Shown here one piece after another: positions 2,586 to 27,080 of a stretch of DNA of 64,000 nucleotides (within the stretch, counting starts at the first letter, position 1; each line of letters opens with the position of its first letter). Origin of the DNA: Zanthoxylum bungeanum (lineage: Eukaryota > Streptophyta > Magnoliopsida > Sapindales > Rutaceae); contig SKCR01015045.1 in assembly GCA_019454045.1 (NCBI GenBank), positions 1 through 64,000 of the forward strand, in the 5' to 3' direction. The notes under the pieces were generated by a model, which did no database searches, was not told where the DNA came from, and saw nothing but the letters and a program-made list of their open reading frames with translations. A program made the translations under genes and the position numbers.

Positions 2586-3967
2586 CTAATTAAGCCTGCA
2601 TTGCAGAGCTGGAAAGAATCAAATAACGTCTCAAGTAGAGAAAGTAAGGACATAAGAAAGAGATTGAAGGATTCTTGAGAAGTCCCACTAGCCAAACAGA
2701 TCGAAGGCTAAAGATCTGCGCTTTGAACATTTTTTTAGGCAATGTCTTATACAAAATATGCCAAGATGGTGTATTATTAAAGTGTGTTGGACCAACAGAA
2801 GCCAGGACAATCATAACTGAAGTCCACGAAGGAATTTGTAGACCAACCAGGGTCAAAATGAGTGGTTAATTGTCAGAAGTGGTTATTACTGGCTGAAAAT
2901 GGGTGAAGCATGTTTCCTACGAGAGAGGATGTTTAGCATGCTAAAAACACGGGCCGATTCAAAGAGCCCCCGCAATTAAAATATCCCATATCATAAAGCC
3001 ATGTCCGTTTAAGAGTTGGGCGATCGCGTTGATTAGGAAAATTCACCCTTCATCTGTCAAGAGGCATATATTTATCATTGTAGCCACCAATTTCTTCACC
3101 AAGTGGGTGGAAGCTATTCTCTTCGTAGAAATTTCACAAGAGAAAGTCACTGGTTTTATTAGAGACTATATAATTTATAGATTTGGGATCCCCTAAATAT
3201 TAATGGCTAATTATGGGACTTCTTTAATAAGGATAAAGTTAAATAATTTTGAGGGAATTTTGGATTCAATTAGTAGACTCTACACCCAATTATGCTCAGT
3301 CAAATGGGCAATAAGAATCGTCTAACAAAATATTAAAGGACATAATCAGGAAAATGATTGTGGATAATGCAAAACATTAGACTGAGTGTTTAAGTCAAAC
3401 TTTATAGGCTCACATGATGTCGCCTCGATCAAGCAAAAAGGTTACCTCATTCCAGTTAGTTTATGGACAAGAGACAGTACCACCTATAGTAATCAATGTT
3501 CGGTTAATTAGGTAGCATTGCAAAAAAACTAAATCATGAGAACTATGGTGGGGCCCTAATGAAAAACCTATTGGAATTGGACGAACTCAAACTAATCGTC
3601 ATAAACTAATTAGAAGTGCAAAAGTCTAAGATTGCTAAATATTCTAGTAAAAAAGTTATGGCTAAGTCATTCGTGAAGGGTGAATTAGTATGGAAGGCGA
3701 TACTACCTTTCGATATGAATAGCCTAAAATATGGCAAATGGTCACCCAATTAGGAATGACTATATAAGATAGAGCTGTATTGCCCAATGAGGCTTATCAT
3801 TTAAAGGATTTAGATGGAAAGGTAGATGATAGAACGATTAATGGAAAATATATTAAGATGAACGTACCATCACTATGGGAACATGAAAGAATAGTTTTAT
3901 ATTAATGGGACAATAAAACATCCCGATGAGCAAAAGAATAAATAAATTCAAAATAGGACGATTATAT
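2586..3967 (+). pseudogene. Ty3/gypsy pol remnant (integrase), Tat/Ogre-like
   Basis: Broken pol C-terminus on the plus strand. One frame at 2675-2869 reads LYKICQDGVLLKC...TEARTIITEVHEGIC, the conserved region before the integrase zinc finger. Further frames give a KPW...WAID-like start of the catalytic core (about 3003-3040), ATNFFTKWVEAI (about 3083), a second-Asp region TADYGTSF-like (about 3205-3225), and YAQSNGQ followed by the Glu region (about 3290-3320). The tail reads LVWK.ILPF......KYGKWSPNWEG (about 3690-3760) and a typical pol end near 3890. Many stops and frameshifts make it non-functional. The motif order fits Tat/Ogre integrases. The element is split at 3968 by another insertion and resumes at 10585 with an antisense ORF and 3' LTR. 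Confidence 0.8.
3963..3967. repeat. Target-site duplication TATAT (left)
   Basis: Five bases TATAT directly before the left LTR, matched by TATAT at 10580-10584 directly after the right LTR; they define the insertion ends. Confidence 0.8.
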
Positions 3968-5796
3968 TGATCAGTGAAATCACACACGTTACGCAAGCGC
4001 ACATATCGCTTAAGTAGTATAAAAATATCGATCCCACGAGGACTTAATTTCTACTGTTGTTATTAATTATTGATACTATTTATTTACATGTATCTAATTA
4101 AAGGGAGAAGGGAATGATTGTTTGATTGGTTGGTTGAATGTGGATTTGCTAAGTAAATACACAAAAGAAAATACCAAGGAAAATAAACAAAAGACACAAA
4201 TATATAGGGTTGTGATTCCACACAGTATTATACTAAAGATGAATTAATTCTCTTATATATGTGTAATAAATTATTCTATTAACCTGGAGTACGAAGTTAT
4301 GCAAAAACCTCTTTCGATGGTGAGATACAAACACCCAGAATAACTCAATTAATCATATGTCTATGTTAACCAAGTTATCTGAATTCATTAAGTTCAAGTT
4401 CCAATTGTGGCTACCCCCGCCCGACAGTTATATGTCTATCCTGGAAGAAAATCTACCTAAGGGTCACCATGCCCTAAGGTGAGATCGTGCGCTATTGAAT
4501 TTAAGGCTGAAACCTAAAATCCTTTTCCAAGTTCATTTTAAGTTTACCCCATCAATCTTATTGGTGATCAGGCAACAAGAAGCATTAATCTTAAAATTCA
4601 GTAAACAAACTAAAGCATTAAACATAATATAATTAAATCAATTATTAAACACGTAAATATTGTGCTTCATCACTTCCTTAGAATAAAAATAAATTGTTGG
4701 GGGTTAGGGTATCCACCTTTAATATTTCAAATGTAGAAATCTCACTTTATTATAATATAGAAATTGCTAGTGTTACCCATTTAAGTCAAACCAGCCATAA
4801 GGCGGTGTTATTATTTGTCTATAACCAGCCATATAGGCGGTAATCATCTGTCACCTAACGACTGACCATATAGGCGGTGTCACATTATGTCAAATAAAAA
4901 AAACCAACCATTAAGGTGGTATCAAATTTAATCAATATTATTAAATTACAATTTTCATATTATAAATTAAGTGAGATTAATCTACCTTATCATATTAAAG
5001 GTTGCACCTTTCCTCCATCGGAAATTAACTACTAAACATAAAAGAAAGTAAAAACACACAAACTATTATTACTAAAAATAAAAATAAAAATAAAAATACA
5101 TTACAAAACCACTAAATAAAACACACAAGATACAATCTTTAATTATTTATCAAGAAACCAAGGAAAGTATGAAATTTACAAATGAAATGGAATGGTATTT
5201 ATAGGCAAAATTTTACCTCCACCAATTTCTTCATCAATTTCTCCACAAATTTCTCGACCAATTGCTCCACCAAACATGACACCAAACATGGTACAAAACA
5301 TAACACCAAATCCTCCACCAAACATGCAAGCAAGTTTGGTGGAAGTTTGACAATTTTAATTTATTTTAATTTATTTTATTTTATTTTTGTTTTGAAAATG
5401 ACTTTAATAATTACACATAACACACTTCCATATTTTTTATCAATTCATCAAAATTGTAGATCTTTTAGTCTTCTTTAATCAGGAACATGAATCACCTTAA
5501 TCCGATATCGGAGTAGAAATTTATGGCCAAAATACGACAATTGCGCAAAGTTGAAATTTTAAAAATTGTACTTCGTTAGAATGCCATTTCAAGTTTCCAA
5601 CCTCCAAAATCCAAATGTCAAGTCCAGTTTTTGCCCTTACTTGTTCCACATTTAGTCTTGATTGATTCCATTAAGTCCCAATTTTATTTATCTGTAAAAT
5701 AAACTAAAACACATCAAAACATTCATAAAATCCGAGAAACTATAAAAAATATTAAGTAAAATGGGCGGTAAATAGTGATATATTTTCCGCTCATCA
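3968..5796 (-). repeat. 3' LTR of the LOG-carrying element (full length)
   Basis: 1829 bp. In element orientation it starts TGATGAGCGG and ends CACTGATCA. It matches 9594-10579 at both ends but keeps about 840 bp (roughly 4578-5430) that the other copy lacks. That extra part holds a run of GCCATATAGGCGGT-like repeats (about 4793-4920). The open frame 5182-5478 is a low-complexity STKH-rich reading of the LTR. Confidence 0.85.
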
Positions 5797-6290
5797 CACC
5801 CCCAAACCTAACATTTTGCTAGTCCTCGAGCAAAACAATAAAATAAAATAAAACAAACAACTGAAACTAAATTAAACTAAGTCACTTTCGTAGGGATCAC
5901 GATTGCATTTAACATATGCAACAAGCCTTTAAACCCCTATGTGTCTCTAGTGGACGAATTGTAGTCTCGTGAGGGCTTACATCGATGATACCCACAAACG
6001 TCAAATGCAAACAAAAGCAAAATGATCAAACAAGTTAGTGACTAAACAAGTGAAACGATTATAGAAGTTAATAGTTTTCTTTCTTTCTAAATTACCAAAT
6101 AAGTAAATTCTCCGATTATTTTTATCATTCTCCATATACATAACCAACAAGGTATTAATCAAATCAGTGTGCCCACAATATTCATAAGTGTAGTTGAAAA
6201 GAGAGTAATATTTTTCTCCTAAAGTTATATCAGAATTCACACCTTTATTTGGCAATGGAACTTTTTCTGACTTTTATTTATTTAGAACAT
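5797..6290 (-). other. PPT and 3' untranslated region of the LOG-carrying element
   Basis: Next to the LTR is the purine tract TAGGTTTGGGGGTG (plus-strand 5797-5810, read on minus). The adjoining bases (AGCAAAATGTTAGG, and the CGTAGGGATCACGATTGCATTT block at 5890-5912) are the reverse complement of 21710-21815 in the 16115-23201 element, so the two share their 3' end. The frame at 6001-6255 has no recognisable domain. Confidence 0.65.
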
Positions 6291-6535
6291 CTTCAATCCA
6301 TGTAGCGAGTTTTGGGCCAGTGACTCCCAAGCCAGTTGGCTTTAGGGCACTAGGTGTTAAGACACCCTTACAGACTTAATTACTCGGATCTCAGATATCT
6401 TTTTTTAACATCTTTAATCAATGTAGCGAGCTTTGGGCCAGTGACTCCCAAACCAGTTGGCTTTAGGGCAGTAAGTGTTAAAACACCACTTCGGACTTAA
6501 TTACTCGAATTTCAGATATTTGTTTTTCACTTATT
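6285..6535. repeat. Tandem duplication of about 130 bp
   Basis: Two adjacent copies (about 6287-6410 and 6412-6535) share CAATC.ATGTAGCGAG, TTTGGGCCAGTGACTCCCAA, CCAGTTGGCTTTAGGGCA, GTGTTAA.ACACC and CTTAATTACTCG in the same order. They lie in the 3' untranslated part of the element, between the LOG ORF and the PPT. Confidence 0.85.
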
Positions 6536-7031: not shown

Positions 7032-7685
7032 TTAAATGTTAAGATCCAGATTTATCCGATGCTTCTTACCACGATCATTATCAGACCAGTTAATCTTGGA
7101 AAGGATAGGGTCAAATTGTGGTTTAAATGTTAAAAGTTGGTCAATTAAATCATTTATTGTTCTGGCAGTGAAGAGGAAATCTTTTACAGGTTTTAAAAGG
7201 AACCCATTTCTCCTGGCATTTTCAAGAACCATAAAAAGGAAGTCATAAAATCCATCAACATTAAACAGTCCAATTAGTTTTTGTTGTATGTTCAAGTTCG
7301 CCCAAGATAGAACTGTAAAAATTTCCTCTATCGTGCCCAAGCCACATGGCAAAGCAATAAAAGCATCAGCACGATTAATCATTTCAACTAGTCGTTCAGA
7401 CATACCTGGCACGATGCATTCCTCTTCGTTTGATGGTCCTATAAGATTCGCCTCTACCAAAGGTTTTGGGATGATTCCCAGAACTTGACTACCTCATTCA
7501 TATACAACCCTTGAAATGTATCCCATTAGTCTAAGATTGCCACCACCATATACTAAGTGCATAATCCTCTCAGTTATGACTCTACCTAATTCTTGTGCTG
7601 CCGCAATGAATTCTGGTTTAGAGCCAACAATAGTACCGCAAAACACATAGATTTTTACAACTCATCTTCTTGAAGTTGCTTCCAT
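7032..7685 (-). pseudogene. LOG-like: Retrotransposon-borne LOG (cytokinin phosphoribohydrolase), two stop codons
   Basis: Intact LOG enzymes cleave cytokinin riboside 5'-monophosphates to free bases, the last step of cytokinin activation. From the ATG at 7685 to the stop at 7032 there is one uninterrupted 218-codon phase, close to the length of plant LOG proteins, with TGA at codons 8 and 64 and no frameshift. Visible features: IYVFCG start of the Rossmann fold (about residue 12), HLVYGGGN (about 43-50), LGIIPKP (about 69-75), MSERLVEMINRADAFIALP (about 94-112), the signature PCGLGTIEE (Gly2 of PGGxGTxxE changed to Cys, at 7323-7352), GLFNVDGFYD, and a C-terminal FKPQFDPILSKINW block matching the plant LOG tail. 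It has no introns, unlike host LOG genes, and shares the orientation of the enclosing element. It is a sister of 26428-27080. Confidence 0.9.
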
Positions 7686-7740
7686 TTTTTTATGTATTTC
7701 TTTCTCAGATCTGGATGTCTTCAAGAGTACAATAACGAGC

Positions 7741-7760
7741 TAAATTTATAGATCCTGAAA
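7741..7760 (-). promoter_or_regulatory. TATA-like and splice-acceptor-like sequence before LOG
   Basis: On the minus strand TTTTCAGGATCTATAAATTTA lies 56-76 bases before the ATG. The same block (TTTTCAGGTTCTATAAATT) precedes the plus-strand LOG at 26352-26370. It could be a TATA box (CTATAAATT) or a 3' splice site (TTTTCAG|G); which one cannot be decided from sequence. Confidence 0.4.
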
Positions 7761-8160
7761 ATGGGTGAGTAATAATAGCACTAGTACTTGCCAAATGAAA
7801 ATTATTAGCTAAACAGTAAAATATATCGTGAAAGTCAAAAAGTGTTGATCCTATCGGTGAAATTTAAGGAACTCAAAACCGAAAAGCAAATGAAATCAAT
7901 TATTTAAGGTAACAGAATTATGTACGCAATACGTCACTCGATTGGTATATAAATCCATTAGGATGCGTCTCAAGAATCCATTCCTTACTCAACCATCATT
8001 AATGAATTAAATCTCATCATTGTGATTGCCAAACACCATTCCTCTTATCTTCTCTGCTTTAAATGCTCTGTTTGTGTCTTTCTCTGAAAATATCACACAA
8101 AATTACAAACTCTACAACATGTATACACAAAATAAAATATAAATTGCAATAATAAAAATT
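7761..8160 (-). other. Spacer between the GGGAGGCAACCC motif and LOG
   Basis: No reading frame of note. It is collinear with 25800-26350 read in reverse: shared blocks include GAGACGCATCCTAATG.ATTTATA, the CGAGTG.CGTATTG block and ACTTTTTGACTTTCACGA, showing that the LOG cassette is common to both elements. Confidence 0.7.
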
Positions 8161-8164
8161 GCAT

Positions 8165-8212
8165 GGGTTGCCTCCCTACTAGCGCTAAATTTTTCATCTT
8201 CAGTCAGACGTT
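8165..8212 (-). promoter_or_regulatory. Conserved GGGAGGCAACCC motif of the element family
   Basis: On the minus strand GTCTGACTGAAGATGA... TTTAGCGCTAGTAGGGAGGCAACCC. The same motif stands at 20461-20505 and 25754-25798 in the other gypsy elements, always after the gag/pol region and before the 3' block. The GGG..CCC part can pair as a short hairpin. A similar GGGAGGCAACCC sequence is known to me from Athila-type elements; its role is not established. Confidence 0.7.
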
Positions 8213-8472
8213 ACTGAAGATCATCTGTCAATGAGGTTTCAGCGTGGTTTTGGACGTCCGATTAAAGCCAATCTCATGAGCGTTGCTTTTGAAGGGTCCC
8301 TTGCAACGGTAAAATGGCAAAAAAAAATTTGTCTCATTCAGTGCTTGTGCCACCTTTTTAAAATTTATTACTCCAGTGGTTCCTGAAAAGAAATTCCTGA
8401 AAAGAAAGAAATAAAATCAGAAGGTATCGTATGGTGCTTGACTTTGAATGGGAGTTCCATTTTATCAAGCTT

Positions 8473-8640
8473 CTAGGCGATGTCTTTGATTTTTACTCCC
8501 CAATACATTGATTTTTCTCCTAAATGCATGAGATCTTTAATATGGTCAGACATTTGCTCCTCCATTTGTTTTGCTTCTTGCTCCACCTTTTCGTCACAGA
8601 TGTACTCCAAAATTTCATTGTTCAGCTCTTCATCTTTCAT
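8473..8640 (-). CDS. Small ORF of the gypsy element (56 codons)
   Basis: Starts MKDEELNNEILEYICDEKVE and continues as an acidic, Glu/Lys/Met-rich helix to the stop at 8473. It is preceded on the minus strand by an acceptor-like sequence (TTTACATCCTCAG|GTTGACACATATGG) with an open in-frame extension VDTYGAWISQ. It lies where pol would start. I do not recognise it; it could be a gag exon or the start of a degraded pol. Confidence 0.4.
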   Translation of the reverse strand: MKDEELNNEILEYICDEKVEQEAKQMEEQMSDHIKDLMHLGEKSMYWGVKIKDIA

Positions 8641-8746
8641 CTGTGAAATCCATGCTCCATATGTGTCAACCTGAGGATGTAAATATATGTTTAATTGTAG
8701 GTCTTTATCCTTTGTGGTTGGTATGAACGGCTCGAGTAGCTATTCT

Positions 8747-9456
8747 TCAAACATCTGTGAGAGTTTCATCTTCACTTGTTGATGGTATAGACAGCTCTAC
8801 TACTTGTTCCTCCTCAGAGTCTGATGAATAATAAAGATAAAATTGAGATTTTGTTGGTTCGGGCTCCTGAACTGATACCTTTGATTCTTGATACTGCTCA
8901 GCCTTTTCCTCTGTTAAAGTGTCATCATGAAATGCTTGGTATTTTAAGGCTTCATCGGTGTTATTTGAATTTGTTCTGTGAGGTATGTAGTTATGGTTGT
9001 AGATTATTTGTCTCAATTCATTTACCATCCTCTATAAGGTTTTGATTTGATCCAGAAATGTTGCATCATGTTCAGCTTCCCGTTTCTCGAGCCTGTTTAT
9101 CAATTGTCTTCCCACTGATGGTTCTGGTCCTTAAAGATCATAGGTTGATCGTAGATAAGATGGAAAATATAGTTCAGTGAATATGCTGGTTCATTATATG
9201 AAGGTCCCTGATAGTTCTTCCACCCTGAATTATAGTTGTATATGCATTGATCGCGTGGGTGGTTACCATCACATTTCTCACAGCTCCCCATTGCGTTATG
9301 AAATGGTTGGGAAAATGTTGTATTGAATGGTTCTGATATCCAATGATAATTGGGCTGGACATTAGGCCTCAGAAAACCGGACTGCTGCTCCCTAATTTGG
9401 GGTGTATCTTCACCTCGTAAAGCTCATAATTCTTCTATTTCCCAATAGTGATCCAT
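8747..9456 (-). pseudogene. Gypsy gag C-terminal part with zinc knuckle
   Basis: From the ATG at 9456 (MDHYWEIEEL, then an in-frame TGA) the frame continues to a zinc-knuckle-like CEKCDGNHPRDQC (about 9250-9288, spacing CX2CX3HX4C) and YQGPSYNEPAYS, typical of Athila-type gag C-termini. A frameshift near 9105 and a TAG near 9030 separate a second block (9028-8747) that begins MVNELRQIIYNHNYIPHRTN and ends in an acidic tail with SSDSEEEQVVEL. The N-terminal capsid region seen at 17799-18160 in the other element is missing, so this gag is both truncated and broken. Gag would form the particle and bind RNA. Confidence 0.75.
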
Positions 9457-9570
9457 TTTTCAACCACCTGAAAAATAAAAGAAGGAAATAAAAATTACAA
9501 ATAAAAATAAAGAAAATTAGATACAAGTAAAAGAGATAGCTTCAAAATTAATAACGCAAGAAAAATAAGT

Positions 9571-9587
9571 CCCCGGCAACGGCGCCA
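9571..9587 (-). promoter_or_regulatory. Primer-binding site of the LOG-carrying element
   Basis: Minus strand TGGCGCCGTTGCCGGGG, six bases inside the right LTR, the PBS used by Athila-like gypsy elements. Identical to the PBS at 17504-17520 on the plus strand. Confidence 0.9.
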
Positions 9588-9593
9588 AAAACT

Positions 9594-10579
9594 TGACCGG
9601 TGAAATCACACACGTTACGCAAGCGCACGTATCGCTCAAGTAGTATAAGAATATCGATCCCATGAGGACTTAATTTCTACTGTTGTTATTAATTATTGAT
9701 ATTATTTATTTACAGGTATCTAATTAAAGGGAGAAGGGAATGATTGCTTGATTGGTTGGTTGAATGTGGATTTGCTAAATAAATAAATATACAAAAGAAA
9801 ATAATAAGGAAAATAAACAAAAGACACAAATATCTGGCGTTGTGATTCAACACAGTATTATTCTAAAGATGAATTAATTCTCTTATATATGTGTAATAAA
9901 TTAGTCTGTTAACCTGGAACACAAAGATATGCAAAAGTCTATTTCGATGGTCAGATACAAACACCCAGAATAACCCAATTAATCATATGTCTATATTAAC
10001 CAAGTTATCTGAATTCATTAAGTTCAAGTTCCAATTATGGCTACCCCCGCCCGATAGGTATATGTCTATCCTGGAAGGAAATCTACCTAAGGGTCACCAT
10101 GTCCTAAGGTGAGATCGTGAGCTATTGAATCTAAGGCTGAAACCTAAAATCATTTTTCCAAGTTCATTTTAAGTTTACCCCATCAATCTTATTGGTGATC
10201 AGAATTCGAAATTCGAAATTCCTATGAACGTCAAAGTTGTAGATCTTTGAGTCTTCTTTAATCTGGAACCTGAATCACCTCAATCCGATATCGGAGTAGA
10301 AATTTATGGCCAAAATACGGCAATTGCGCCAAGTTGAAATTTTCGAAATTGTACTTCGTTAGAACGCCATATCAAGTTTCCAACCTCCAAAATCAAAATG
10401 TCAAGTCCAGTTTTTGCCCTTATTTGTTCCACATTTAGTCTTCATTGATTCCATTAAGTCCCGATTTTATTTTATCTTTAAAATAAACTAAAACATATAA
10501 AACGTTTGTAAACCCCGAGAAACTATACAAAATATTAAATAAAATGGGCGATAAATAGTGATATATTTTCCGCTCATCA
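9594..10579 (-). repeat. 5' LTR of the LOG-carrying element (internally deleted)
   Basis: 986 bp. Matches the first ~610 bp and last ~370 bp of 3968-5796; the middle ~840 bp is missing. At the deletion point (about 10201-10225) there is a short AATTCGAAATTCGAAATTC repeat. The deleted part would include much of U3/R, so this copy is unlikely to be an active promoter. Confidence 0.85.
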
Positions 10580-10584
10580 TATAT
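10580..10584. repeat. Target-site duplication TATAT (right)
   Basis: Matches 3963-3967 and closes the insertion. Confidence 0.8.
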
Positions 10585-14811: not shown

Positions 14812-16114
14812 TGTAGGCACTACATTTTTGCATGTAAGTCCCAATGATAAGTCTCGAATGGAGACACTACCTTTTTAGTTGCGGAAGTCGCGGAAAGCGG
14901 TCGTCGGAAGGGAAGGGTCAAGAATTGGCATTTTTGTGGATTCGGTTCGCTCGTTCAAGCTTCGGATTCGCTCGTTCGATCTCAATTTTAAAATCACCCT
15001 CGGCCCATTCCTCACAATCCCCTACACACGCGAAACCAATTCCTTCACACACCATTCCTTCACAAACCAAACAAATACTAAACAACAAATAGCCAAACAC
15101 AACAGACAAAAACCATGCAACCACCCTTCAATAACCCTAAAAAACCAATAAACCTCACGACAATTCACAACCACTCATTCACTACCCATAAACAAAGCAT
15201 CTCACCCAAACACTAACCACCAAATCAACAAACCAATGTCACCCATTCCTACACCCATACACATCCAATTGCCAAGCATTATTCCCCTCACCCATGCACC
15301 TTCATGCAAATCCATACCACCCATGACCACCCTCCAGACAACCCAGACCACCCATGCTTCACGTGAATAAAGAAAACCCATGCAACACCCAATAATAAAC
15401 AAACACCCATACCACCCATAACCACTCATACAAACACCCATGCCATACCCATAAAACCACCCATGCCGCCCCTCTTTCCCTCTCTGACTTCAAAAAAACA
15501 ACACCATATAAGCCTTCCATCTACACTCACAGGGGGGGATCTCAGACAGCATCCATGCACCCTAGCAAATAAACCCTTCTGAACATCTCTCAACTCTCGG
15601 CCATTACTCCTCCTTCACTGCCCAGAACCAGCACCATTCAGCCCTCAACCAGGCCTCAATCTCACGCCAACAACCCCTGAAATCCAGCACCACTTCACGC
15701 AAAAAAAACAAGACGGCACCACTCACCTTGCCTCTTCACACTTAGCCTATCACAAAGCCATCACACTTCCATTTGACAGCCCCTAACTTCTTTGCATCTC
15801 ACGCCTACTGCCCTCCTCACTGCAATCCCTTCCCTCGTTCACAGCCAAGACTCACGCAAGCAACAAAGAACCATCATCATCAAGACGATAACAACCCCTG
15901 CAACCTTGCATCTCACGGCCACTCTCTCATAAACTCTATTCAACGTACAGCCCTGCAATCACCTTCAAGAGCCACCTAAACACTCATTCAAAACCTAAGC
16001 CTCTGCGCCACCTGCACCTTAAAATGCCCTCGCAGCCCACTGCCACTGAAACCCTAAGCTACAAAGGTCACAGCTCGCCACTGCCCCCTTCACACCGTGA
16101 ACCCTAATGCCTTG
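14812..16114 (+). repeat. Left LTR of the chimeric element, part 1
   Basis: Collinear with 30983-32281 of the right LTR. Strikingly C- and A-rich, G-poor on this strand from about 14990 (runs such as CCACCCATAACCA), which produces several spurious frames. Ends with CCTTG (16110-16114), the TSD of the nested element. Confidence 0.9.
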
Positions 16115-17498
16115 TGATAAGTGTATAAAAATGTATTTTGAAACATCACTTATCTAGGTTTATTGTTAAGTATTTAGTTATATATTTTATATTTTATTAC
16201 ATACTTTCTATCATTATATTAATTTAGAAATATTTATTACTTAAACTAATTTAGTGATTTTTATTTGTAGAAATATTAATACATGGATCATGGGATAATT
16301 ACAAGTGTTTAGGGATGTATAGGACGCACACAAAAGCCGAGAGGGCGAAGAGCAAAGATTGAGCTGGCGCCGTGGCGCCACAATCCCATACAAAATCCAA
16401 GGAGTATGGCGCCACAGCGCCATTTGTTAATCAAGAAGTTGGCGTGTGTATTGAATAAAGAAGAAAGCAATCGTGGGGCCAAGTTGCAATTGTTGACCAA
16501 AATAAAAGACTTCACGTGGACATTGCTTTAATAAAAGAAGACAATTGAGAAGAGAATTAAATGAAGCAAAACACGTGGGCCCAGCTGTGGACTTTAGGGT
16601 TCATTGCTTATTATAAAACCATGCAAGAAGTTGACAAACCGGGGGGGCTGACTTCGTGAAGTTAGCTGCTCTTGCTGCACAAAAACAGAAAAAAAACGCA
16701 CAGAGCAGTGCGTGCCGAGAGAGCAGAGCCGAGGGAAAAAGAGAAAACAGAGCCGTGCAGATTCCCGGGATCAGAACCAATGATTTATCCAATGATTTTC
16801 CTATCCATCTCTGTTGTTTCTTCATCTAGCATGCGGAACTAATCTCCTAGGGAAAGCTAAGGCGAACTCTTGTACCCAACTCTTGTATTCTTGTTATTTG
16901 ATTCATGGATGATCTTATTTGATTAATATAATTGTTATTCTATTCATCTCTTTATTCTTTGATTATTTGAGAACTATATTTTATTAGTTTACATATAGAT
17001 TCAGTCATGCTTTTTCTATGTGTTGTTGGTAAAATTGGTTTGATAGATTAAGGTTGTTTTGCGAGTTGATCTTCTGCTGCAGTATTGTCCGAATGTATAT
17101 TGTCGTCGTTAGATAGGTCGTAACGATAACCTTGTGAGTTGTGAACGTAGAGAAGGTTGAATGACAATTACCCTAGAATTTAAATTGGTGTAGAATTGAA
17201 TATCTTCCAATTGTGGATTTGGGACGTGAAATCCTCAATTGCGTAATTAAATGAATCAATAACGAAATATAAGTAATAGGTACAAGAGAGGACCCTGACG
17301 CTTTGCTTTTTCTCATTATTGTTAAAATCTTTTAAGCTTTTTGAAATCTTTAATTTTCCATCGCAATTTAATCTTTCCTTAAAATCAATTATTGCTAAAC
17401 GTTTTTGTTTAAGTAAATCAGTTTTTGTAACCATCTCTCTGTGGAATCGACACCCCAACTGTATTGCGATAACCACAAGACATATTTGGGCGTAATCA
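16115..17498 (+). repeat. 5' LTR of the Athila-like element
   Basis: 1384 bp, collinear throughout with 21823-23201. It contains repeated GGCGCCNCAGCGCC-like G+C patches (16366-16425) in otherwise AT-rich DNA. Minus-strand frames here (16309-16515, 16601-16825, 17180-17476) recur in the partner LTR and are not genes. Confidence 0.93.
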
Positions 17499-17503
17499 AA
17501 ATT

Positions 17504-17520
17504 TGGCGCCGTTGCCGGGG
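17504..17520 (+). promoter_or_regulatory. Primer-binding site
   Basis: TGGCGCCGTTGCCGGGG five bases after the 5' LTR end; same PBS as at 9571-9587. Confidence 0.92.
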
Positions 17521-17798
17521 AGACGGTTTACAAGCCGAAGGACCAGGTTTGCTTAGTCAATAACGAAGCGGTAACTTCGTTCCTTTTATTTATTTATTTT
17601 TCGTTTATTTATTTTCTTTTAGTAATTTAGTTTTTATTTTTAATTAGTTATTTTTATTTTATTTTTTTTCTAGTCTTTTATTTTAGTATTTATTTTAGTT
17701 ATTTTATTTCTGTTTTAGCTTTAGTTAGATTTTGAGTTTTAGTTTATTCTATTATTTATTTATTTGTTTTATTTCTCGTATTATTTGAGCTTCAATTA

Positions 17799-18954
17799 CA
17801 TGTCTAGACGTAGGGATAGATTTGGTAGATTTGTTAGGACTGAAGAAGAAAGCTCAGACTTGAGAACATATTTGAAAATCCTTTTTCTATACCATCCGCG
17901 TCTAGCGCACATAACATGAGTGAATACGAGAGACCACCTAGGAGGATTCGTAAAGAGTACCGCCACCCAACTCGTACATCTACACCTTCGTGCATCATGT
18001 TTCCTCCTAATGCACCACACATAGACTTTAGGCCTGGGATGATACAGTATCTCCCAACCTTCCATGGTTTGGAGAACGAAAATCCCTATGTGCATATTAG
18101 AGAATTTGAAGAGGTAGTAGCGACTTTCCATGACCGATTTGGAACCACGGACACAAGTTGAAGCTTACAACATTTTAGGGAAAGAGGAGGTCTTAAGGCA
18201 CAAGTTGAGTTATTGACCAAACAGATAGAAGCCTTAAAAGCCAGAGATAGATAGACTACATATATTCAGTAGCCCAGCTAGAATCCCAGAGCCGCCATGT
18301 GTATGATGAGATTAGGGGACCATGTGAGGAACAATGCCATAACGTAGGGATGTACCAAAGTCTTATACCCCATACCCAGACACATATAATCCTAGTTGGA
18401 GGAACCATCCCAACCTTATTTGGAAGCAGGAGTCCCATCACCGAGTCAACATCGCCACCCAGAGGATATATAACCCCTCAGTATCACACACCTATGGTTC
18501 CTAGAAATTCTTTAGAGGATACAGTGCAGGCATTTGTGGAAGCCCAGAAGGTGATTGTGGAAGCCCAGAATAAAACAAATCAAAGGTTTGAGTCATTGAT
18601 AGCTCAAGTAGTTGAAGATAATAGGGAGATTAAGAGTCAGATCTCTAGGTTAACTAATGTCTTGAGTGTGCACGAACAAGAAAATTCCCATCTCAGGCTC
18701 AACCAAATCCACAAAGCCAACAAATAGCACAGGCTAATCATAAAACAACTAATGTGAAAGTGTTTAATGCTATATTCACTAGAAGTGGTAAAGAGGTAGG
18801 GACACAGGATACTCCCAAAACTGTAGGAGACCCTAAAGATATTGATACCAACACCCCACAGGAAGATCCAGAGCCACCTTACCAGGTCAGAGTACCATTT
18901 CCTCAAGCCCTTAGGCCCACTACCAGAGCTGGCGACCCAACGGTGAGATCCTAG
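17799..18954 (+). pseudogene. Gypsy gag, broken and internally deleted
   Basis: Begins near 17799 (MSRRRDRFGRFVRTEEESS). After a shift the frame 17916-18161 gives MIQYLPTFHGLENENPYVHIREFEEV, the conserved start of the gag capsid domain in Athila-like elements. The following capsid helices are absent: after about 18165 the sequence jumps to a linker (LKAQVELLTKQIEALKARDR). The frame 18299-18727 carries a Pro-rich segment and a helical part (VQAFVEAQKVIVEAQNKTNQ...RFESLIAQVVEDNREIKSQI). A last piece (18754-18954) is the region before protease. It is non-functional as it stands. A reversed copy of the last ~480 bp lies at 19717-20201. Confidence 0.8.
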
Positions 18955-19019
18955 AACATCTTAAGCAAGTAAAGATCACCTGCCCTATTACATGTAATCA
19001 AACAGGTTCCCATACGCTA
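18540..19019 (+). repeat. Inverted duplication, arm A
   Basis: The gag C-terminal segment from GAAGCCCAGAAGGTGATTG to CAGGTTCCCATACGCTA is repeated in reverse complement at 19717-20201 with few differences. Confidence 0.9.
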
Positions 19020-19121
19020 AACTTTCCAGGTATCATCTTCAATTGAACACGAGCTCTTCTTTTTTCTCCTTTACAATTCTTTGGGATCACTTTCACTGCA
19101 GGAGGATTTGATTCAGGTTGT
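19020..19121 (-). repeat. Inverted duplication, arm Q' (post-protease)
   Basis: Reverse complement of 20203-20303: blocks CTTCAATTGAACACGAGCTC and GGAGGATTTGATTCAGGTTG are matched in the same positions. It abuts arm A without spacer. Confidence 0.88.
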
Positions 19122-19720
19122 AGAAGAGCTGTTTCTGGTCGGAATGCTTCGAGCATGTATGTACCTTGACACTCATCATCATCCCGTGGTTGTTTTTCAA
19201 CATGAAAAATATTCACCTCTAGAGTCATATTTCCAAATGATAGCTTCATTAACCGTTCCTACAATTGATAAGAGCATTAGCTGTGGCAAGAAAAGGTCTA
19301 CCTAAGATAAGTGGAATTTTGGACTCAGCGTTAACCACAAATGGGTGTCTAAAATTAGGATGTCAACGGGGTAGTAGAATTTATCAATTTGAACTAAGAC
19401 ATCCTCGACTACTCTCCGTGGTGTTCTAATGGATCGGTCAGCTAACTGTAAGGCTACTGATGAAGGTTTAATCTCGCCAAGCCCTAACTGCACATAAATC
19501 GAATATGGCATGAGATTAACACTAGCACCTAAATCTAATAATGCTTGACCAAACTCATGGGTGCCAATGTGGCAAGTTATGGTAGGACATCCTGGATCTT
19601 TATACTTTGGCGGAGTCCTATGTGCAATTACTGCACTTGTCTGCTCTGTCAAGAATGCAGTCTTTTTCACATTATGCTTCTTCTTCATAGTGCATAGATC
19701 CTTTAAAACCTTAGCGTACG
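19020..19720 (-). pseudogene. Gypsy aspartic protease, inverted within its element
   Basis: Two minus-strand frames (19688-19302 and 19249-18998) encode a retroviral-type aspartic protease domain although the element is plus-strand. Visible: CHIGTHEFGQALLDLGASVNLMP with the DLGAS active-site variant usual in Athila-like proteases (about 19590-19510), VALQLADRSIRTPRRVVEDVLVQIDKFYYPVDILILD (about 19460-19355), then a break where the second glycine-rich flap/ILGRPFL region should be, and the MKLSFGNMTLEVNIFHVE tail. Because of the inversion it cannot be made from the element's own transcript. Confidence 0.85.
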
Positions 19721-20201
19721 TGGGAACCTGTTTGATTACATGTAATAAGGGCAGGTTGATCTTTACTTGCTTAAGATGTTCTAGGATCTCACCGTTGGGT
19801 CCGCAGCTCTGGTAGTGGGCCTAAGGGCTTGAGGAAATGTACTCTGACTTAGTAAGGTGGCTCTGGATCTTCCTGTGGGGGTGTTGTTATCAATATCTTT
19901 AGGGTCGTCCTACAGTTTTGGGAGTATCATGTGTCCCTACCTCTTTACCACTTCTAGTGAATATAGCATTAACACCTTTCACATTAGTTGTTTCGTGATT
20001 AGCCTGTGCTATGTGTTGGCTTTGTGGATTTGGTTGAGCCTGAGATGGGAATTTTTCTTGTTCGTACACACTCAAGACATAGTTAACCTAGAGATCTGAC
20101 TCTTAATCTCCCTATTATCTTCAACTACTTGAGCTATCAATGACTCAAACCTTTGATTTGTTTTATTCTGGGCTTCCACAATCACCTTCTGGGCTTCCCA
20201 A
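19717..20201 (-). repeat. Inverted duplication, arm A'
   Basis: Reverse complement of 18540-19019. Minus-strand frames include ALRPTTRA and FESLIAQVVEDNREI, identical in sense to gag arm A. The 19857-20099 frame is the antisense shadow. Confidence 0.9.
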
Positions 20202-20460
20202 CCTGAATCAAATCCTCCTGCAGTGAAAGTGATCCCAAAGAATCGTAAAAGGAGGAAAAGAAGAGCTCGTGTTCAATTGAAGATGATATCTGGAAAGTTA
20301 AAAATGGGGTTGAATCAACTTTTTAATATGTGCAGTCAAGACTTTCAGCCACCTGACCCTGGAGGATCCATGGATATACTGCCACAGCCAGATAGAAATT
20401 CCCTCTTGTGCCTTCATCAGTACGCTCGATGGAAACCACCATGACAACTTGAGTGTTTGC
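20202..20460 (+). pseudogene. Post-protease fragment in normal orientation
   Basis: Frame 20223-20444 begins MKVIPKNRKRRKRRARVQLKMIS, the same tail as on the minus strand at 19016-19110, then runs on to KMGLNQLFNMCSQDF. In autonomous relatives reverse transcriptase follows here; it is absent. The segment ends at the conserved motif at 20461. Confidence 0.6.
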
Positions 20461-20505
20461 GTCTGGCTGAAGACGTTAAACTTAGCGCTAGCGGGGAGAC
20501 AACCC
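20461..20505 (+). promoter_or_regulatory. GGGAGGCAACCC-type motif
   Basis: GTCTGGCTGAAGACGTTAAA then CTTAGCGCTAGC and GGGGAGACAACCC (one base differs from the other two copies). Same place as at 8165-8212 and 25754-25798. Confidence 0.7.
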
Positions 20506-21822
20506 TTGCATCTGCATTTACTTATTTCATTTTATTTCATTATTTAATTTAGTTTTATTTTTATTGTGTGCTAATTGCATGTTTTATTTTTATTGTTTGC
20601 ATAAGTGTTTTTGCAGGTTTTAGCATAACCTACACAACCACACAACTAAGACTCACCAGCAGGAACCTGATCAACTCCGCGTCTGGTAGTGTTGTTCCTT
20701 AATCCTTTTTCTTTACATTTATCTTACATTGAGGACAATGCAAGTTTTAAGTGTGGGGATGTATGCATGCGCATGAAAACCTGTCTTAAATACATTTATA
20801 TTAAAAAAAAAAAATTGTTTGTTTTTAGTATTTGATAGTTAAACATAGGTCCTATGATGATATTGTTTGTGTTAGGATGAAATCTTAGAAACGATAAGTC
20901 CTTTAATGTACTGTTATCTGATGAATTGAGTAGTTTATCTATGTTAGACTCGTAAGCACTTAATTATGGGTTTCTAACAGTGGAAGCCTGAGTAGTTAGC
21001 AAGATGACTAGTTGAAGAAATTGCATGTCGATGAATGACCGTTTGCTTAGATGTCTATCCTGATTTGCTTGTGTTATGACGTATGGTATGATTGAAAATA
21101 AAAAGAAAAAGTCTCTGAAGAAAGAAAATAAACCACCTATAACCGATAAGCGTGAAGCTACCCATGGGCGAGTATTAGGACCACCATGAGGAGAATGCTA
21201 CCTTAAAGGGTAGGTGTGGTTGAAGAAAAAAATTGGCAAAAGAGAAAAAAAGAAAAAAAATTCAAAAGAAAAGCAACCGGAGACAAGAAAGAAAAAAAAA
21301 GAGAAATCATACCATACTGAGCACGGAGAAGCAACTACAGAGCTTAATTAAGATATCTAGGTTGGTTTGACCCATCGATCCCAATTTTTAAAACAAAATC
21401 ATTGAGTTGGCTTACCTGGGAATAAAGCTGTGAACGAACCTTAGCACACACACACTGTGAGTCTAGCTTAGATGATTTATTCAAAGATTTAAATTTGAGT
21501 TACATTGAGTACTTTGAAGGTTCTTTGGTTTCATTACTATGCATTCTCTGAGGACAAAAATATGTGAAACTATTGGGACTATTTAATTTTTTTTTTTTTG
21601 CATGGTTGCATGTGTTAAATGACATTTGTGGGTGTCGTCGCTGTAAGCCCTCACGAGACTATAACTCGTCCCCTAGGGATACCTAGGGGTTTAAAGGCTT
21701 GTTGCATACGCTAAATGCAATCGTGATCCCTACGAAAGTGGCTTAGATAGTTTATTTATTTAATTTTCATTTTATTTTACGCTTGAATTGCTAGGGACTA
21801 GCAATAAATTGGTTGGGGGTTG
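20506..21822 (+). other. 3' untranslated region and PPT of the Athila-like element
   Basis: No ORF. Contains an acceptor-like TTTTTGCAG|GTTTTAG (about 20611-20627), the Athila signature ACATTGAGGACAATGCAAG...AAGTGTGGGGATG (about 20728-20762), a block collinear with 27180-27905 (AACGATAAGTCC, ACCGATAAGCGTGAAGCTACCCAT, TTAGGACCACCATGAGGAGAA), A/G-rich low complexity (21090-21310) and the PPT TTGGTTGGGGGTTG before the LTR. Confidence 0.75.
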
Positions 21823-23201
21823 TGATAAGTGTATGAAAATGTACTTTGAAACATCACTTATCTAGATTTATTGTTAAGTATTTAGTTATATATTTTATAT
21901 TTTATTACATAATTTCTATCGTTATATTAATTTTGAAATATTTATTACTTAAACTAATTTAGTGATTTTATTTGTAGAAATATTAATACATGGATCCTGG
22001 AACAATTACAAGTGTTTAGGGATGTATAGGACGCACACAAAAGCCGAGAAGGCGAAGAGCAAAGATTGAACTGGCGCCGCGGCGCCACAATCCCATACAA
22101 AATCCCGGGAGTATGGCGCCACAGCGCCATTTGTTAATCAAGAAGTTGGTGTGTGTATTGAATAAAGAAGAAAGCAATCTGGGGGCCAAGTTGCAATTGT
22201 TGACCAAAATAAAAGACTTCACGTGGACATTGCTTAATAAAAGAAGACAATGAGAAGAGAATTAAATGAAGCAAAACACGTGGGCCCAGCTGGTGGACTT
22301 TAGGGTTTCATTGCTTATTATAAAACCATGCAAGAAGTTGACAAACGGGGGGGCTGACTTCGTGAAGTAGCGCTCTTGCTGCAAAAAAACAAAAGAAAAA
22401 ACGCACAGAGCAGTGCGTGGCCGAGAGAGCAGAGCCGAGGGAAAAAGAGAAAACAGAGCCGTGCAGATTCCCGGGATCAGAACCAATGATTTATCCAATG
22501 ATTTCTCTATCTATCTCTGTTGTTTCTTCATCTCTAGCATGCGGAACTAATCTCCTAGGCAAAGCTAAGGGCGAACTCTTGTACCCAACTCTTGTATTCT
22601 TGTTATTTGATTCATGGATGATCTTTTTGATTAATATAATTGTTATTCTATTAATCTCTTTATTCTTTGATTATTTGAAAACTATATTTTATTATTTTTT
22701 ACATATAGATTCTGTCATGCTTTTTCTATGTGTTGTTGGTAAAATTGGTTTGATAGATTAAGGTTGTTTTGCGAGTTGATCTTCTGCTACGGTATTGCCC
22801 GAGGGTATATTGTCGTCGTTAGATAGGTTGTAACGATAACCTTGTGAGTTCTGAACGTAGAGAAGGTTGAATGACAATTACCCTAGAATTTAAACTGGTG
22901 TAGAATTGAATATCTTCCAATTGTGGATTTCGGACGTGAAATCCTCATTGCGTAATTAAATGAATCAATAACGAAATATAAGTAATAGGTACAAGAGGGG
23001 ACCCTGACGCTTTGCTCTTTCTCATTATTGTTAAAATCTTTTAAGCTTTTGAAATCTTTAATTTTCCATCGCAATTTAATCTTCCTTAAATCAGTATTGC
23101 TAATCGTTTTTGTTTAGTAAATCAGTTTTTGTAACAATCTCTCTGTGGAATCGACACCCAACTGTACTGCGATAACCGCAAGACATATTTGGGCGTAATA
23201 A
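21823..23201 (+). repeat. 3' LTR of the Athila-like element
   Basis: 1379 bp, collinear with 16115-17498 with scattered substitutions and short indels; last base pair changed (AATCA to AATAA). Confidence 0.93.
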
Positions 23202-23206
23202 CCTTG

Positions 23207-24300
23207 CACGTTCAACATACCTTAAACTGTTCCTTACACAGCCACACACGCCCTTCATCAACAACCCACCTTCATGTGACACCCTGAACTGCAACAGACT
23301 TCACGCACATAGCACTCCATCCAGCAACCCTACTTCACGTATAGCCTTCACGCCAAAAAGCCCAGAAATAACCCAAAATCGGCCCTCGAATCAACCTTAA
23401 ATAGTAGCCAAAACTGAGATAAAAAATCCCCAAAAACAGCGGAAACAGCGAAAATAGTGAACCTGAGAAAACAGCGAAACAGCGGACCCGTGAAAACAGT
23501 GGGAACGATAACCCTTCCGACACCGTGGAACGCACACTCCCGAAAGCGACTTAAAAGGTAAGACCTGAGGGCACCATTTTATTTATTATCCTTTATTTTT
23601 AGTTATTTTATTATTTTATTCGCATGAGTATTATGAATTGGTGCATGATGTGATTTCCGGGTGAACGAGAATGTGTTCTCTCTTGTGGTATATATGGATG
23701 GAAACCCGGACGTAAATTCCGTAGCCGAATCTGAATGGATGGTATTGCGGTTTGCACTCAGGATACAATGCCACGTATCACTTGAGAGACACACGTATTT
23801 CGTTTCGTCCAAACTTGTATTTGAGCATGATTAGGTTGCTAGTATGTTATTATTTCTTAAGCATGATTAGGTCGTTAGTACGTTATTTCCCTACGTATGT
23901 TATAGTTATTACTTCGCAATAGGAGTTTTATCTACGTTTGCTTAGGTTGTTATTTAGTTTTCATGTTTGATAATTTAACATGTTCGTTGTGTGATATTGT
24001 ATGTTTGCCTTTATGAACGTGAACTAGATCTAGGTTAATCTCGGGCATGTATGTTGTGTAGACTTGGTTAAATTATTACACGAATCCGTTCATTACAAGT
24101 GGCATAAGTAAGGGACCATTCCGAACCCAACGATTTGAGGTATTCCCTTGCGAGGGGTGAGTGCGGCCTTAAATTATTTTCCCGGTTCACACCGGGTGGC
24201 GACTCCATTTTATTTCTCCGGTTTAGTCCCCCGCGGGCTACTCCGTACTCCCAACCGGGCCGCGAGCCCGGAACATCGTCGTCCATTTCTGTGTCCTACA
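23207..24300 (+). repeat. Left LTR of the chimeric element, part 2
   Basis: Collinear with 32282-33367. Contains GGTTCACACCGGGTGGCGACTC and the terminal CATTTCTGTGTCCTACA. The PBS follows at 24302. Confidence 0.9.
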
Positions 24301-24301: not shown

Positions 24302-24320
24302 TCTAGCGACTCCACTGGGG
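24302..24320 (+). promoter_or_regulatory. Primer-binding site of the chimeric element
   Basis: TCTAGCGACTCCACTGGGG immediately after the LTR, a PBS type used by Tat-group gypsy elements (GCGACTCCACTGGGG). Confidence 0.8.
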
Positions 24321-25190
24321 ATAGAGAATCGGCCCCGAAATAATATCTGTAATGTTTGTGATTTGTGTTTTAAATTAACCATGTCTACTGTGGGTTTAGG
24401 AGTTTAATCAAAGGTATTTTTAAGGGTGGGTAAGTTTGGTGTCTTCCCTCATTCACTACCTTTCTATAAGGAAAAGCTGTGAAGGCACCTAGATAATCAT
24501 TTACTCGTAACCTGTTGTGATGGACTAATTTGGAGGACTCGTTGTTTATTCCTGTCACCAATCGATAAGAGCCTAAGAGGCTAAGGTACTTAAGAGAGCC
24601 TGCTCCACCCTCCATCCGTGGAATCTACAACGGGAAATCCATTTGACAGTCAGTCACACACCATAACTCGTTGGCACGTACCGTAAGGTATAAAAAGGGT
24701 GCGCTCATTTGGTCGCTCGAACCCTTGAGTGGGGAGTCCTAGTTGTGAGCAAACCTTCGTCAGTAGGAGCCTTTGTTTACATTCTTTTAAACATGCATGT
24801 GAACCCTAGTTGTATGACCCATAGAAATCATTTCTCTTATGCTTGTGTTTGGGACCATCGTTATTTGGATTCAATTGGACATTTTGTCAAGAGATATGAA
24901 CTAGTTGGGCCATTTAAACTGGAACGAGTTCGTGTCCTTTGATAATTGGGCCAAAAGCTTCTAAAATGTCGATGGGCCATTTTGTGTTCAGGCCTCTAAT
25001 TATTTGAAGTCGTTTAGCCATGTTATCGTAAAAGTATAAACTTGTTGGGCCTTTTCAACTGGGACAAGTTTGCACCGCGCAATGATGTGATTGAATGCTT
25101 TAAAATGATGATAGGCCAACTTATATATGTATTTTCCGCATCACACGCATCTCAAGCATTTCATGCATACACGCATCATGTTAACCCTTT
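24321..25190 (+). other. Leader of the chimeric element, no gene seen
   Basis: About 0.9 kb after the PBS with no gag motif in any frame. Two loosely repeated stretches centred on TATGAACTAGTTGGGCCATTTAAACTGG (about 24893) and TATAAACTTGTTGGGCCTTTTCAACTGG (about 25035) are about 140 bp apart. The frame at 24709-24942 has no recognisable domain. Confidence 0.6.
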
Positions 25191-26345: not shown

Positions 26346-26372
26346 CACCCCTTTTCAGGTTCTATAAATTCA
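26346..26372 (+). promoter_or_regulatory. TATA-like / splice-acceptor-like sequence before LOG
   Basis: TTTTCAGGTTCTATAAATTC; CTATAAATT is 58-66 bases before the LOG ATG, followed by a pyrimidine-rich CATTCTCTCCTCAACA that could be a transcription start region. The equivalent in the other copy is at 7741-7760. Confidence 0.4.
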
Positions 26373-26427: not shown

Positions 26428-27080
26428 ATGGAAGCAACTTCACAGCAGCGATTCAAGAGAATTTGTGTTTTCTGTGGATCCAACACTGGCAATAAATCGG
26501 AATTCATGGAAGCTGCTAAGGAATTGGGGCGAGTCATGGCTGAGAAAAATATACACTTAGTATATGGCGGTGGCAATCTTGGGATAATGGGAAGCATTTC
26601 AAAAGCCGTTCAGGAAAGTGGCGGTCATGTTTAGGGAATCATTCCAAAACCTTTGGCGGACGAACAATTAATTGGACCAACAAATGGAGATGAACGCATC
26701 GTATCAGGTATGTCTGAACGACTCCATGAAATGATCAATACTGCTGATGCGTTTATTGTGTTACCAGGTGGACTTGGTACCCCTGAAGAAATATTCACCG
26801 TAGCATCATGGGCGCATTTAAACATTCATCGGAATCCCATTGGGATACTCAATGTTGAGCATTTCTTCGATTTTCTGTTTGTATTTCTCGCGGAAGCCAA
26901 GAGACATGAGTTCGTCACCAAATATGTGAAGATATTTTTCTTGACTGCGACAAGGCTGAAGAGTTGATTGACCAGATCATAGCCTTTGAACCGAAGCTCG
27001 ACCCCATTCTCTCCAAATTGGACTGGACAGATAGCGATCGTGGCAAGAAGTGTAGATTGGACATTGATCTTAATCGGTGA
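26428..27080 (+). pseudogene. LOG-like: Second retrotransposon-borne LOG, one stop and one 1-base deletion
   Basis: Intronless copy of a cytokinin riboside 5'-monophosphate phosphoribohydrolase. From ATG at 26428: RFKRICVFCGSNTGNKSEF (residues about 8-26, typical plant LOG start), HLVYGGGNLGIMG (about 44-56), a TAG at codon 69 (26632-26634), then GIIPKPLADEQLIGPTNGDE. Further on are MSERLHEMINTADAFIVLPGGLGTPEE with the full PGGxGTxxE signature (26761-26790), FTVASWAHLNIHRNPIGILNVE, and after a one-base deletion near 26950 a tail EELIDQIIAFEPKLDPILSKLDW ending at TGA 27078-27080. Length 653 bp against 654 bp for the sister copy at 7032-7685. The host gene would have introns, so capture went through RNA. 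It cannot make a full protein as it stands; a truncated 104-residue frame (26653-26967) remains. Confidence 0.92.

What the first reader, a model, noticed from the sequence alone, without database searches (positions are those of the whole stretch)
7032..7685. LOG cytokinin-activation gene captured by a non-autonomous LTR retrotransposon
Inside a fully bounded gypsy element (LTRs, PBS, PPT, TSD TATAT) that has gag but no polymerase lies an intronless, near full-length LOG reading frame in element orientation. It keeps one phase over 218 codons with only two TGA stops and no frameshift, and retains most LOG motifs. The element could move a cytokinin-activating enzyme gene around the genome under LTR control. 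I do not know of a described LOG-transducing plant retrotransposon; that novelty is inference.
Basis: partly seen in the sequence, partly recalled or inferred. Interest (0 to 1): 0.9.

Follow-up and report, generated by a model that had tools for sequence, protein, structure and literature searches.

The report
Retrotransposons carrying a hormone-enzyme gene
A family of plant jumping genes carries its own reshaped copy of LOG, the gene whose enzyme switches on the growth hormone cytokinin, often beside a gene that resembles one of plant RNA viruses, so the jumping genes may use both to steer the host cell.

Summary
Confirmed: 7032-7685 (minus) is an intronless LOG frame (ATG to TAA, two internal TGA, no frameshift) in a bounded LTR element, 3968-10579, TSD TATAT, no pol found. 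This copy is dead, but its family is large: two capped searches put near-full-length LOG frames on 286 contigs of this genome, mostly without stops. Of 20 loci read, 4 also hold RT and integrase, and 15 hold all or part of an ORF related to carlavirus nucleic-acid-binding proteins. A second LOG (26428-27081) lies in a different element. Copies chosen without regard to LOG show omega near 1 in the two closest pairs and 0.12-0.18 in saturated deep pairs: decay after insertion, purifying selection between insertions. Homologues in other eudicots form one clade apart from cellular LOGs. They keep the catalytic Arg/Glu, mostly lose two substrate-pocket residues, and mostly end in a basic patch plus LxLxL (EAR-like), strictly absent from 120 cellular LOGs. 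A LOG (YgdH) domain in Citrus and Populus gypsy elements is already in print, so LOG carriage itself is not new; the tail, pocket change, viral-type partner and selection signal appeared in no paper I searched. Function is inferred.

The parts
3968..5796 (-). 3' LTR of element 1 (1829 bp)
   Evidence: repeat with 9594-10579, TG..CA ends
9594..10579 (-). 5' LTR of element 1 (986 bp, lacks about 845 inner bases)
3963..3967 (.). target-site duplication TATAT, left
10580..10584 (.). target-site duplication TATAT, right
9570..9587 (-). primer-binding-site-like TGGCGCCGTTGCCGGGGA (tRNA-Asp type; the tRNA name is recalled)
   Evidence: same site after the 5' LTR of several other copies
5797..5808 (-). 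purine tract next to the 3' LTR
8234..9267 (-). degenerate gag-ORF-like remains
   Evidence: tblastn with the 374-aa ORF of L009; no Pfam gag hit
7032..7685 (-). LOG frame of element 1, two internal TGA, ends in RINLDLNI
7745..7761 (-). TTTTCAGG..TATAAA block about 60 bases upstream of the LOG ATG (candidate core promoter or splice acceptor)
6275..6516 (-). 121-bp tandem duplication (86% identical) between LOG and the 3' LTR
14812..16114 (+). 5' LTR of element 2, first half (split by a nested insertion)
   Evidence: 96.8% to 30983-32281; TSD CCTAG/CCTGG, 4 of 5 bases
16112..23199 (.). nested LTR element that splits the LTR of element 2
   Evidence: terminal repeats 16112-17496 and 21820-23199, 95.3%
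23202..24300 (+). 5' LTR of element 2, second half
   Evidence: 94.8% to 32277-33367
24304..24321 (+). PBS-like TAGCGACTCCACTGGGGA of element 2, unlike that of element 1 (Ogre/Tat-like; recalled)
26352..26368 (+). TTTTCAGG..TATAAA block upstream of LOG copy 2
26428..27081 (+). LOG copy 2 (64% identical to the query over residues 1-174; one stop, one frameshift), ends in DIDLNR
30983..33367 (+). 3' LTR of element 2

Best explanation
LOG is a long-kept accessory gene of an old lineage of plant Ty3/gypsy-type retrotransposons, not a hitchhiking relic. Shown: it lies downstream of pol in the sense direction in full-length copies, often with a carlavirus-CRP-like ORF between pol and LOG; it is retained in pol-deleted derivatives and in a second element type; between insertions it evolved under purifying selection; its relatives form one clade apart from cellular LOGs. 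Inferred mechanism: the LOG unit is expressed as its own mRNA (from the conserved TATAAA block, or spliced at TTTTCAG). The protein is a Rossmann-fold phosphoribohydrolase that keeps the catalytic Arg and Glu but has a rebuilt N6 pocket, so it frees cytokinin or another N6-modified base. Its disordered basic plus LxLxL tail takes it to the nucleus and binds TOPLESS-type co-repressors. Together with the CRP-like protein (viral relatives suppress silencing or act as transcription factors) it makes the host cell more permissive or more proliferative while the element copies itself.
For: Copies: LOG in 150 of 150 scored matches, 147 without stops in the matched stretch, and 150 of 150 with a cellular LOG as query, 143 without stops; 286 different contigs. 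Architecture of 20 loci: RT plus INT in 4, a shortened pol piece plus the CRP-like ORF in 5, gag-like ORF plus LOG without it in 5, other or tandem in 6; CRP-like ORF whole or partial in 15 of 20. Domains RT, RNase H, INT in that order in L027. Selection in copies not chosen for LOG: omega 0.98 and 0.85 at dS 0.05 and 0.10, 0.29-0.48 at dS 0.23-0.33, 0.12-0.18 at dS 1.5-2.1; WIN1-WIN2 p=2.5e-20. Clade 99/95. Tail: strict LxLxL in 77 of 96 full-length relatives against 0 of 120 cellular; 80.4% against 12.9% in shuffled tails. Pocket: K99 and E124 kept in the same 10 of 120 relatives, 120 of 120 cellular; Arg98 in 107 and Glu121 in 117 of 120; roles of these residues from PMC4979012 passages. 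Fold: pLDDT 85, best PDB 2a33, tail disordered. CRP-like: Carla_C4 in 28 and Viral_NABP in 27 of 30. Upstream block: TATAAA in 13 of 13, TTTTCAG in 12 of 13.
Against: No expression, enzyme or binding data. The searches lists are the best-scoring copies, so their intactness is selected; in the LTR-anchored sample all 7 LOG-bearing flanks of 30 are broken. L048 has high omega with its relatives (0.51-1.00). dS above 1 is saturated. 19 of 96 relatives lack the strict LxLxL, among them six Sapindales-type ones that stop just before it; 7 of 120 cellular LOGs match a relaxed form. LxLxL is a short motif. Pocket residues also vary in mycobacterial LOG, so a changed substrate is not proven. In other species I saw proteins, not element context; linkage of LOG and CRP-like ORF there rests on two equal contig lengths. 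11 of 120 relatives have Gln at the catalytic Arg position.
Confidence: 0.62

Rival explanations
1. Accessory gene under selection, but with plain cytokinin activation: the protein still makes ordinary cytokinin, and the pocket changes and the tail are neutral or tune stability only.
For: Catalytic Arg/Glu and PGGxGTxxE kept in nearly all relatives; Trp128 and Met95 of the pocket largely kept; LOG fold.
Against: K99 and E124 are lost together in 110 of 120 relatives but kept in 120 of 120 cellular LOGs; strict LxLxL in 77 of 96 against 0 of 120.
Confidence: 0.2
2. The protein is kept for a non-catalytic use, for example a nucleotide-binding or co-repressor-binding scaffold.
For: Pocket residues changed; 11 of 120 relatives have Gln at the catalytic Arg position; tail motif.
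Against: Glu121 kept in 117 of 120 and the Gly/Thr of the motif almost invariant.
Confidence: 0.1
3. Hitchhiking: a host LOG mRNA was picked up and copied passively, without function for the element.
For: The window copy, copy 2 and the 7 LTR-anchored copies are all broken.
Against: Falling omega with depth, p=2.5e-20 for the window's two copies, one deep clade spanning several eudicot families.
Confidence: 0.04
4. These are ordinary intronless cellular LOG genes (the annotated LOGL10 type) spread by duplication, with LTRs as mere neighbours.
For: NCBI names some Populus homologues LOGL10.
Against: LOG sits between paired LTRs, downstream of PBS, pol or CRP-like ORF in the loci read, on 286 contigs.
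Confidence: 0.04

Closest known systems
YgdH (LOG-type) domain in Citrus and Populus Ty3/gypsy elements (PMC9289625, section 12 read; cites Steinbauerova et al. 2011, not held)
   Same: A LOG-family domain inside plant gypsy elements; the Populus proteins found here probably belong to the same set.
   Different: Reported there as a domain hit in consensus sequences. The passages I read say nothing of a tail, pocket change, CRP-like partner, selection or deletion derivatives.
Orchid Ty3/gypsy elements with a 2-ODD (AlkB-type m6A demethylase) ORF (PMC9289625, abstract, section 12 and passages)
   Same: A cellular enzyme kept as an extra ORF by a plant gypsy lineage.
   Different: Different enzyme; activity shown there in vitro, none shown here.
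Cellular plant LOG (LONELY GUY) enzymes, e.g. At2g37210 (2a33)
   Same: Fold, Arg98/Glu121 and PGGxGTxxE in intact copies.
   Different: 44-53% identity or so, no LxLxL tail in the cellular set, K99 and E124 mostly replaced in the element set.
Carlavirus cysteine-rich / nucleic-acid-binding proteins (Pfam Carla_C4, Viral_NABP)
   Same: The ORF upstream of LOG matches both profiles above their cut-offs; basic stretch and Cys cluster.
   Different: About 182 aa, strongly conserved in plants, encoded by retrotransposons; direction of transfer unknown.

Membership tests
LTR retrotransposon, Ty3/gypsy order | paired LTRs with TG..CA ends and TSD | tested here: met
   (element 1: TATAT; element 2: CCTAG/CCTGG)
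LTR retrotransposon, Ty3/gypsy order | PBS and purine tract | tested here: met
   the tRNA identity is recalled, not tested
LTR retrotransposon, Ty3/gypsy order | pol with RT before integrase | tested here: not met
   not found in the window element; met in relative L027 and RT plus INT hits in 4 of 20 loci
Athila or Tat/Ogre lineage | RT phylogeny | not tested
   lineage names rest on recalled PBS types only
LOG phosphoribohydrolase | PF03641 / LOG fold | tested here: met
LOG phosphoribohydrolase | PGGxGTxxE with catalytic Arg and Glu | tested here: met
   relatives: Arg 107 and Glu 117 of 120; 52 own copies: Arg 50, Glu 52; the window copy reads PCG
LOG phosphoribohydrolase | N6/prenyl pocket Lys and Glu (CgLOG K100, E125) | tested here: not met
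   kept in 10 of 120 relatives, 120 of 120 cellular
LOG phosphoribohydrolase | hydrolysis of cytokinin nucleotides | not testable with these tools
   needs enzyme assay
EAR-motif protein | LxLxL | tested here: met
   77 of 96 full-length relatives strict; 0 of 120 cellular
EAR-motif protein | TOPLESS binding, repression | not testable with these tools
   needs binding assay
Carlavirus-type CRP/NABP | Carla_C4 / Viral_NABP profile | tested here: met
   28 and 27 of 30; first member 22.7 and 26.8 bits against cut-offs 20.9 and 23
Carlavirus-type CRP/NABP | fold | tested here: inconclusive
   model pLDDT 58.7, no fold search made

The most novel reading that the evidence does not exclude
A retrotransposon lineage spread over many eudicots carries a two-gene host-steering set: a carlavirus-type nuclear/silencing protein and a LOG-derived enzyme with a rebuilt substrate pocket, a nuclear EAR tail and its own promoter, passed between unrelated LTR elements and kept by selection for tens of millions of years.
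Probability: 0.4. Interest if true: 0.92.

Novelty: new variant of a known kind. Interest (0 to 1): 0.76.

Why it matters
If true, mobile DNA encodes hormone-type and co-repressor-binding functions of its own, and hundreds of intact copies of a LOG-like enzyme sit in one plant genome. That bears on how retrotransposons reach meristem or germ cells and on how LOG genes are counted in plant genomes (some annotated LOGL10 genes may be element genes). It is directly testable: one enzyme assay and one TOPLESS binding assay decide the main points. The CRP-like ORF also links plant retrotransposons with RNA-virus proteins.

Tried and rejected
Rejected: cellular intron-containing LOG at this place (one open frame between paired LTRs). 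Rejected: LTRs of different insertions (matching TSD and PBS). Rejected: passive hitchhiking.

Led nowhere: viral contigs gave no element-type LOG (10 pattern matches, 0 relatives; 18 distant loci, 25-55% identity in part of the query, not studied). The host's own LOG exons could not be separated, because a cellular LOG query returned 150 element-type frames and a shorter query did not complete. Host species not identified (MatK search not answered). Copy count by exact pattern not answered. CRP-like fold too poor to search. TSD finder returned no candidate for any pair; TSDs were read by eye.

Paper searches (PMC open-licence library only). In none of the listings or passages did I see the tail, the pocket change or the CRP-like ORF in a retrotransposon. 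Most subscription papers are not held, so this is not proof of absence.

Full report
Observation. The minus-strand frame 7685-7032 runs from ATG to TAA, 218 codons, with TGA at codons 8 and 64 and no frameshift. It is a LOG by Pfam (PF03641, 2.9e-26) and by solved relatives (2a33, 5.9e-27). It lies between LTRs 3968-5796 and 9594-10579 (93.0% and 92.3% in two blocks) with TSD TATAT and a PBS-like site. RT, RNase H, integrase and CRP-like queries give no hit in this element; gag-ORF-like remains do. The label gag is weak: a knuckle-like motif by eye and no Pfam hit. The copy also carries PCG for PGG. LTR divergence is 0.070 (K2P).

A second copy. The window holds another LOG, 26428-27081 on the plus strand, 64% identical over its first 174 residues, with a stop and a frameshift. 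Its element spans 14812-33367; the 5' LTR is split by a nested element 16112-23199; TSD CCTAG/CCTGG, and the PBS-like site differs from that of element 1. The two elements share the LOG unit with its upstream part: 424 aligned bases at 77% and 731 at 71%. I assign Athila- and Tat/Ogre-like types from recalled PBS sequences only; no RT tree was made.

The family in this genome. The own genome is 3.96 Gb in 51,709 contigs, unnamed. A PF03641 search scored 150 of 47,331 first-look candidates; 150 of 150 matched and 147 have no stop in the matched stretch. A cellular LOG as query scored 150 of 57,929; 150 of 150 matched at 47-52% identity, 143 without stops. Together these are 286 contigs. Some are duplicate contigs of one place: L005 and L006 give the same hits, L020 and L021 are nearly the same. 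Both lists are the best-scoring copies, so intactness there is selected. An LTR piece of element 1 scored 40 of 8,500 candidates.

Architecture. I read about 9.9 kb (two shorter) around 20 LOGs taken from the top of the list. RT plus integrase: 4 (L016, L019, L022, L027). A shortened pol piece plus the CRP-like ORF: 5 (L010, L012, L014, L017, L018). Gag-ORF-like plus LOG, no CRP-like ORF: 5 (L009, L011, L023, L025, L028), the class of the window copy. Other, tandem or cut: 6. The CRP-like ORF is whole or partial in 15 of 20. In L027 the order is RT, RNase H, integrase, with LOG downstream. LTR K2P of six of these copies is 0.012-0.037, so they are younger than element 1.

Selection. To avoid choosing by LOG I fetched flanks of 30 of the 40 LTR hits (10 of up to 3.4 kb, 20 of 1 kb). 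LOG was found in 7 of 30, and all 7 have one to four stops; many hits may be 5' or solo LTRs or LOG may lie outside the short stretch. Six of the seven (L076 is a near copy of the window locus and was left out) plus the two window copies give 28 pairs. The two closest pairs have omega 0.98 (dS 0.05) and 0.85 (dS 0.10). Pairs without L048 and WIN2 at dS 0.23-0.33 have 0.29-0.48. WIN2 pairs have 0.12-0.18 at dS 1.5-2.1, which is saturated. L048 is an exception with 0.51-1.00. WIN1 against WIN2: 22.5% of nonsynonymous and 64.4% of synonymous sites differ, p=2.5e-20. The 41 copies from the top list give 0.82 at dS under 0.05 (10 pairs) and 0.21-0.31 above, but they are a selected set. The pattern fits neutral decay after insertion and purifying selection along the lines that transpose.

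Relatives. A search with an intact element LOG found 7,852 proteins among 7,999 scored; of the 120 listed, the named ones are from Xanthoceras, Populus, Reevesia, Diplodiscus and Paulownia. A search with cellular LOG3 gave a comparison set of 120; it is rich in LOG1/LOG3 types, so LOG5, LOG7 and LOG8 types are hardly sampled. A tree of 53 rows puts 31 element-type rows in one group (99/95) apart from 20 cellular rows plus a LOG8 stretch (97/87), with one distant bacterial row.

Tail. Strict LxLxL in the last 14 residues: 77 of 96 full-length element-type proteins, 0 of 120 cellular; a relaxed form 85 of 96 and 7 of 120. Shuffled tails give 12.9% against 80.4% observed (78 of 97). The exceptions include Xanthoceras-type proteins that end in KRRRLD or KKRRLA. 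In 52 own copies, 42 keep the motif, 5 are not aligned there and 5 are changed. A basic patch precedes it. That LxLxL is the EAR motif that binds TOPLESS is established knowledge, recalled here.

Pocket. PMC4979012 (passages) names Arg99 and Glu122 as catalytic in CgLOG and Met96, His97, Lys100, Glu125, Trp129 as the prenyl pocket. By alignment these are R98, E121, M95, H96, K99, E124, W128 here. In 120 element-type proteins Arg98 is kept in 107 (Gln in 11), Glu121 in 117, Trp128 in 118, but Lys99 and Glu124 in the same 10 only; in 120 cellular proteins Arg98, Glu121, Lys99 and Glu124 are invariant. Nine of the ten lack the LxLxL tail; P0040 has both. In 52 own copies position 99 is Leu in 51. 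The same paper notes pocket differences in a mycobacterial LOG, so a new substrate is likely but not shown. The AlphaFold model (pLDDT 85) matches 2a33 best and has a disordered tail.

CRP-like partner. The ORF upstream of LOG matches Viral_NABP and Carla_C4 above cut-off, as do 27 and 28 of 30 relatives. In the own genome 150 of 150 scored match, of 19,137 candidates; the control genomes give 0 of 14. Relatives occur in Xanthoceras, Populus, Acer, Rhamnella and Orobanche. Two pairs of LOG and CRP-like clusters list contigs of equal length (8,723 and 4,511; chance about 0.009 in a rough test on hand-picked lists), which hints at linkage elsewhere. Passages of PMC12172455 say that carlavirus CRPs share silencing suppression and that one acts as a transcription factor causing hyperplasia. 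Whether viruses or elements had it first is open.

Upstream block. In 13 aligned upstream regions (11 of the 20 loci, chosen by me, plus both window copies) TATAAA is present in 13 and TTTTCAG in 12, 60-75 bases before the ATG. A 50-base part is 90% identical between the window copies while 64% of synonymous sites differ. The joint motif occurs in the 64-kb window only at these two places. It may be a core promoter, a splice acceptor, or both.

Prior work. PMC9289625 (abstract, section 12 and passages read) reports the YgdH domain in gypsy consensus sequences of two Citrus species and, without its filter, Populus, in line with Steinbauerova et al. 2011. So a LOG domain in plant gypsy elements is known; what I add is its scale here, selection, tail, pocket, partner ORF and module exchange.

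Verdict. A real and strong finding, old rather than new in its bare form, with an untested but testable function.

Noticed in passing
26428-27081 (+): Second LOG copy in the window, in a different LTR element (14812-33367) with another PBS type.
   Followed up: yes
L010:3790-4389, L012, L014, L016-L022, L024, L027 and others: ORF related to carlavirus nucleic-acid-binding proteins between pol and LOG.
   Followed up: partly
27988-30861: Array of degenerate direct repeats inside element 2 between LOG and the 3' LTR.
   Followed up: no
L015, L020, L021: Tandem copies of the LOG-bearing segment in one contig.
   Followed up: no
39576-41539 with 47528-49488, and 49487-51099 with 58691-60299: Further long direct repeats (94% and 92%), probably other nested LTR elements.
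   Followed up: no
G000:C22116:9908-15040: Near copy of the window element (one LTR piece 99%, same LTR spacing), possibly a duplicate contig of the same place.
   Followed up: partly
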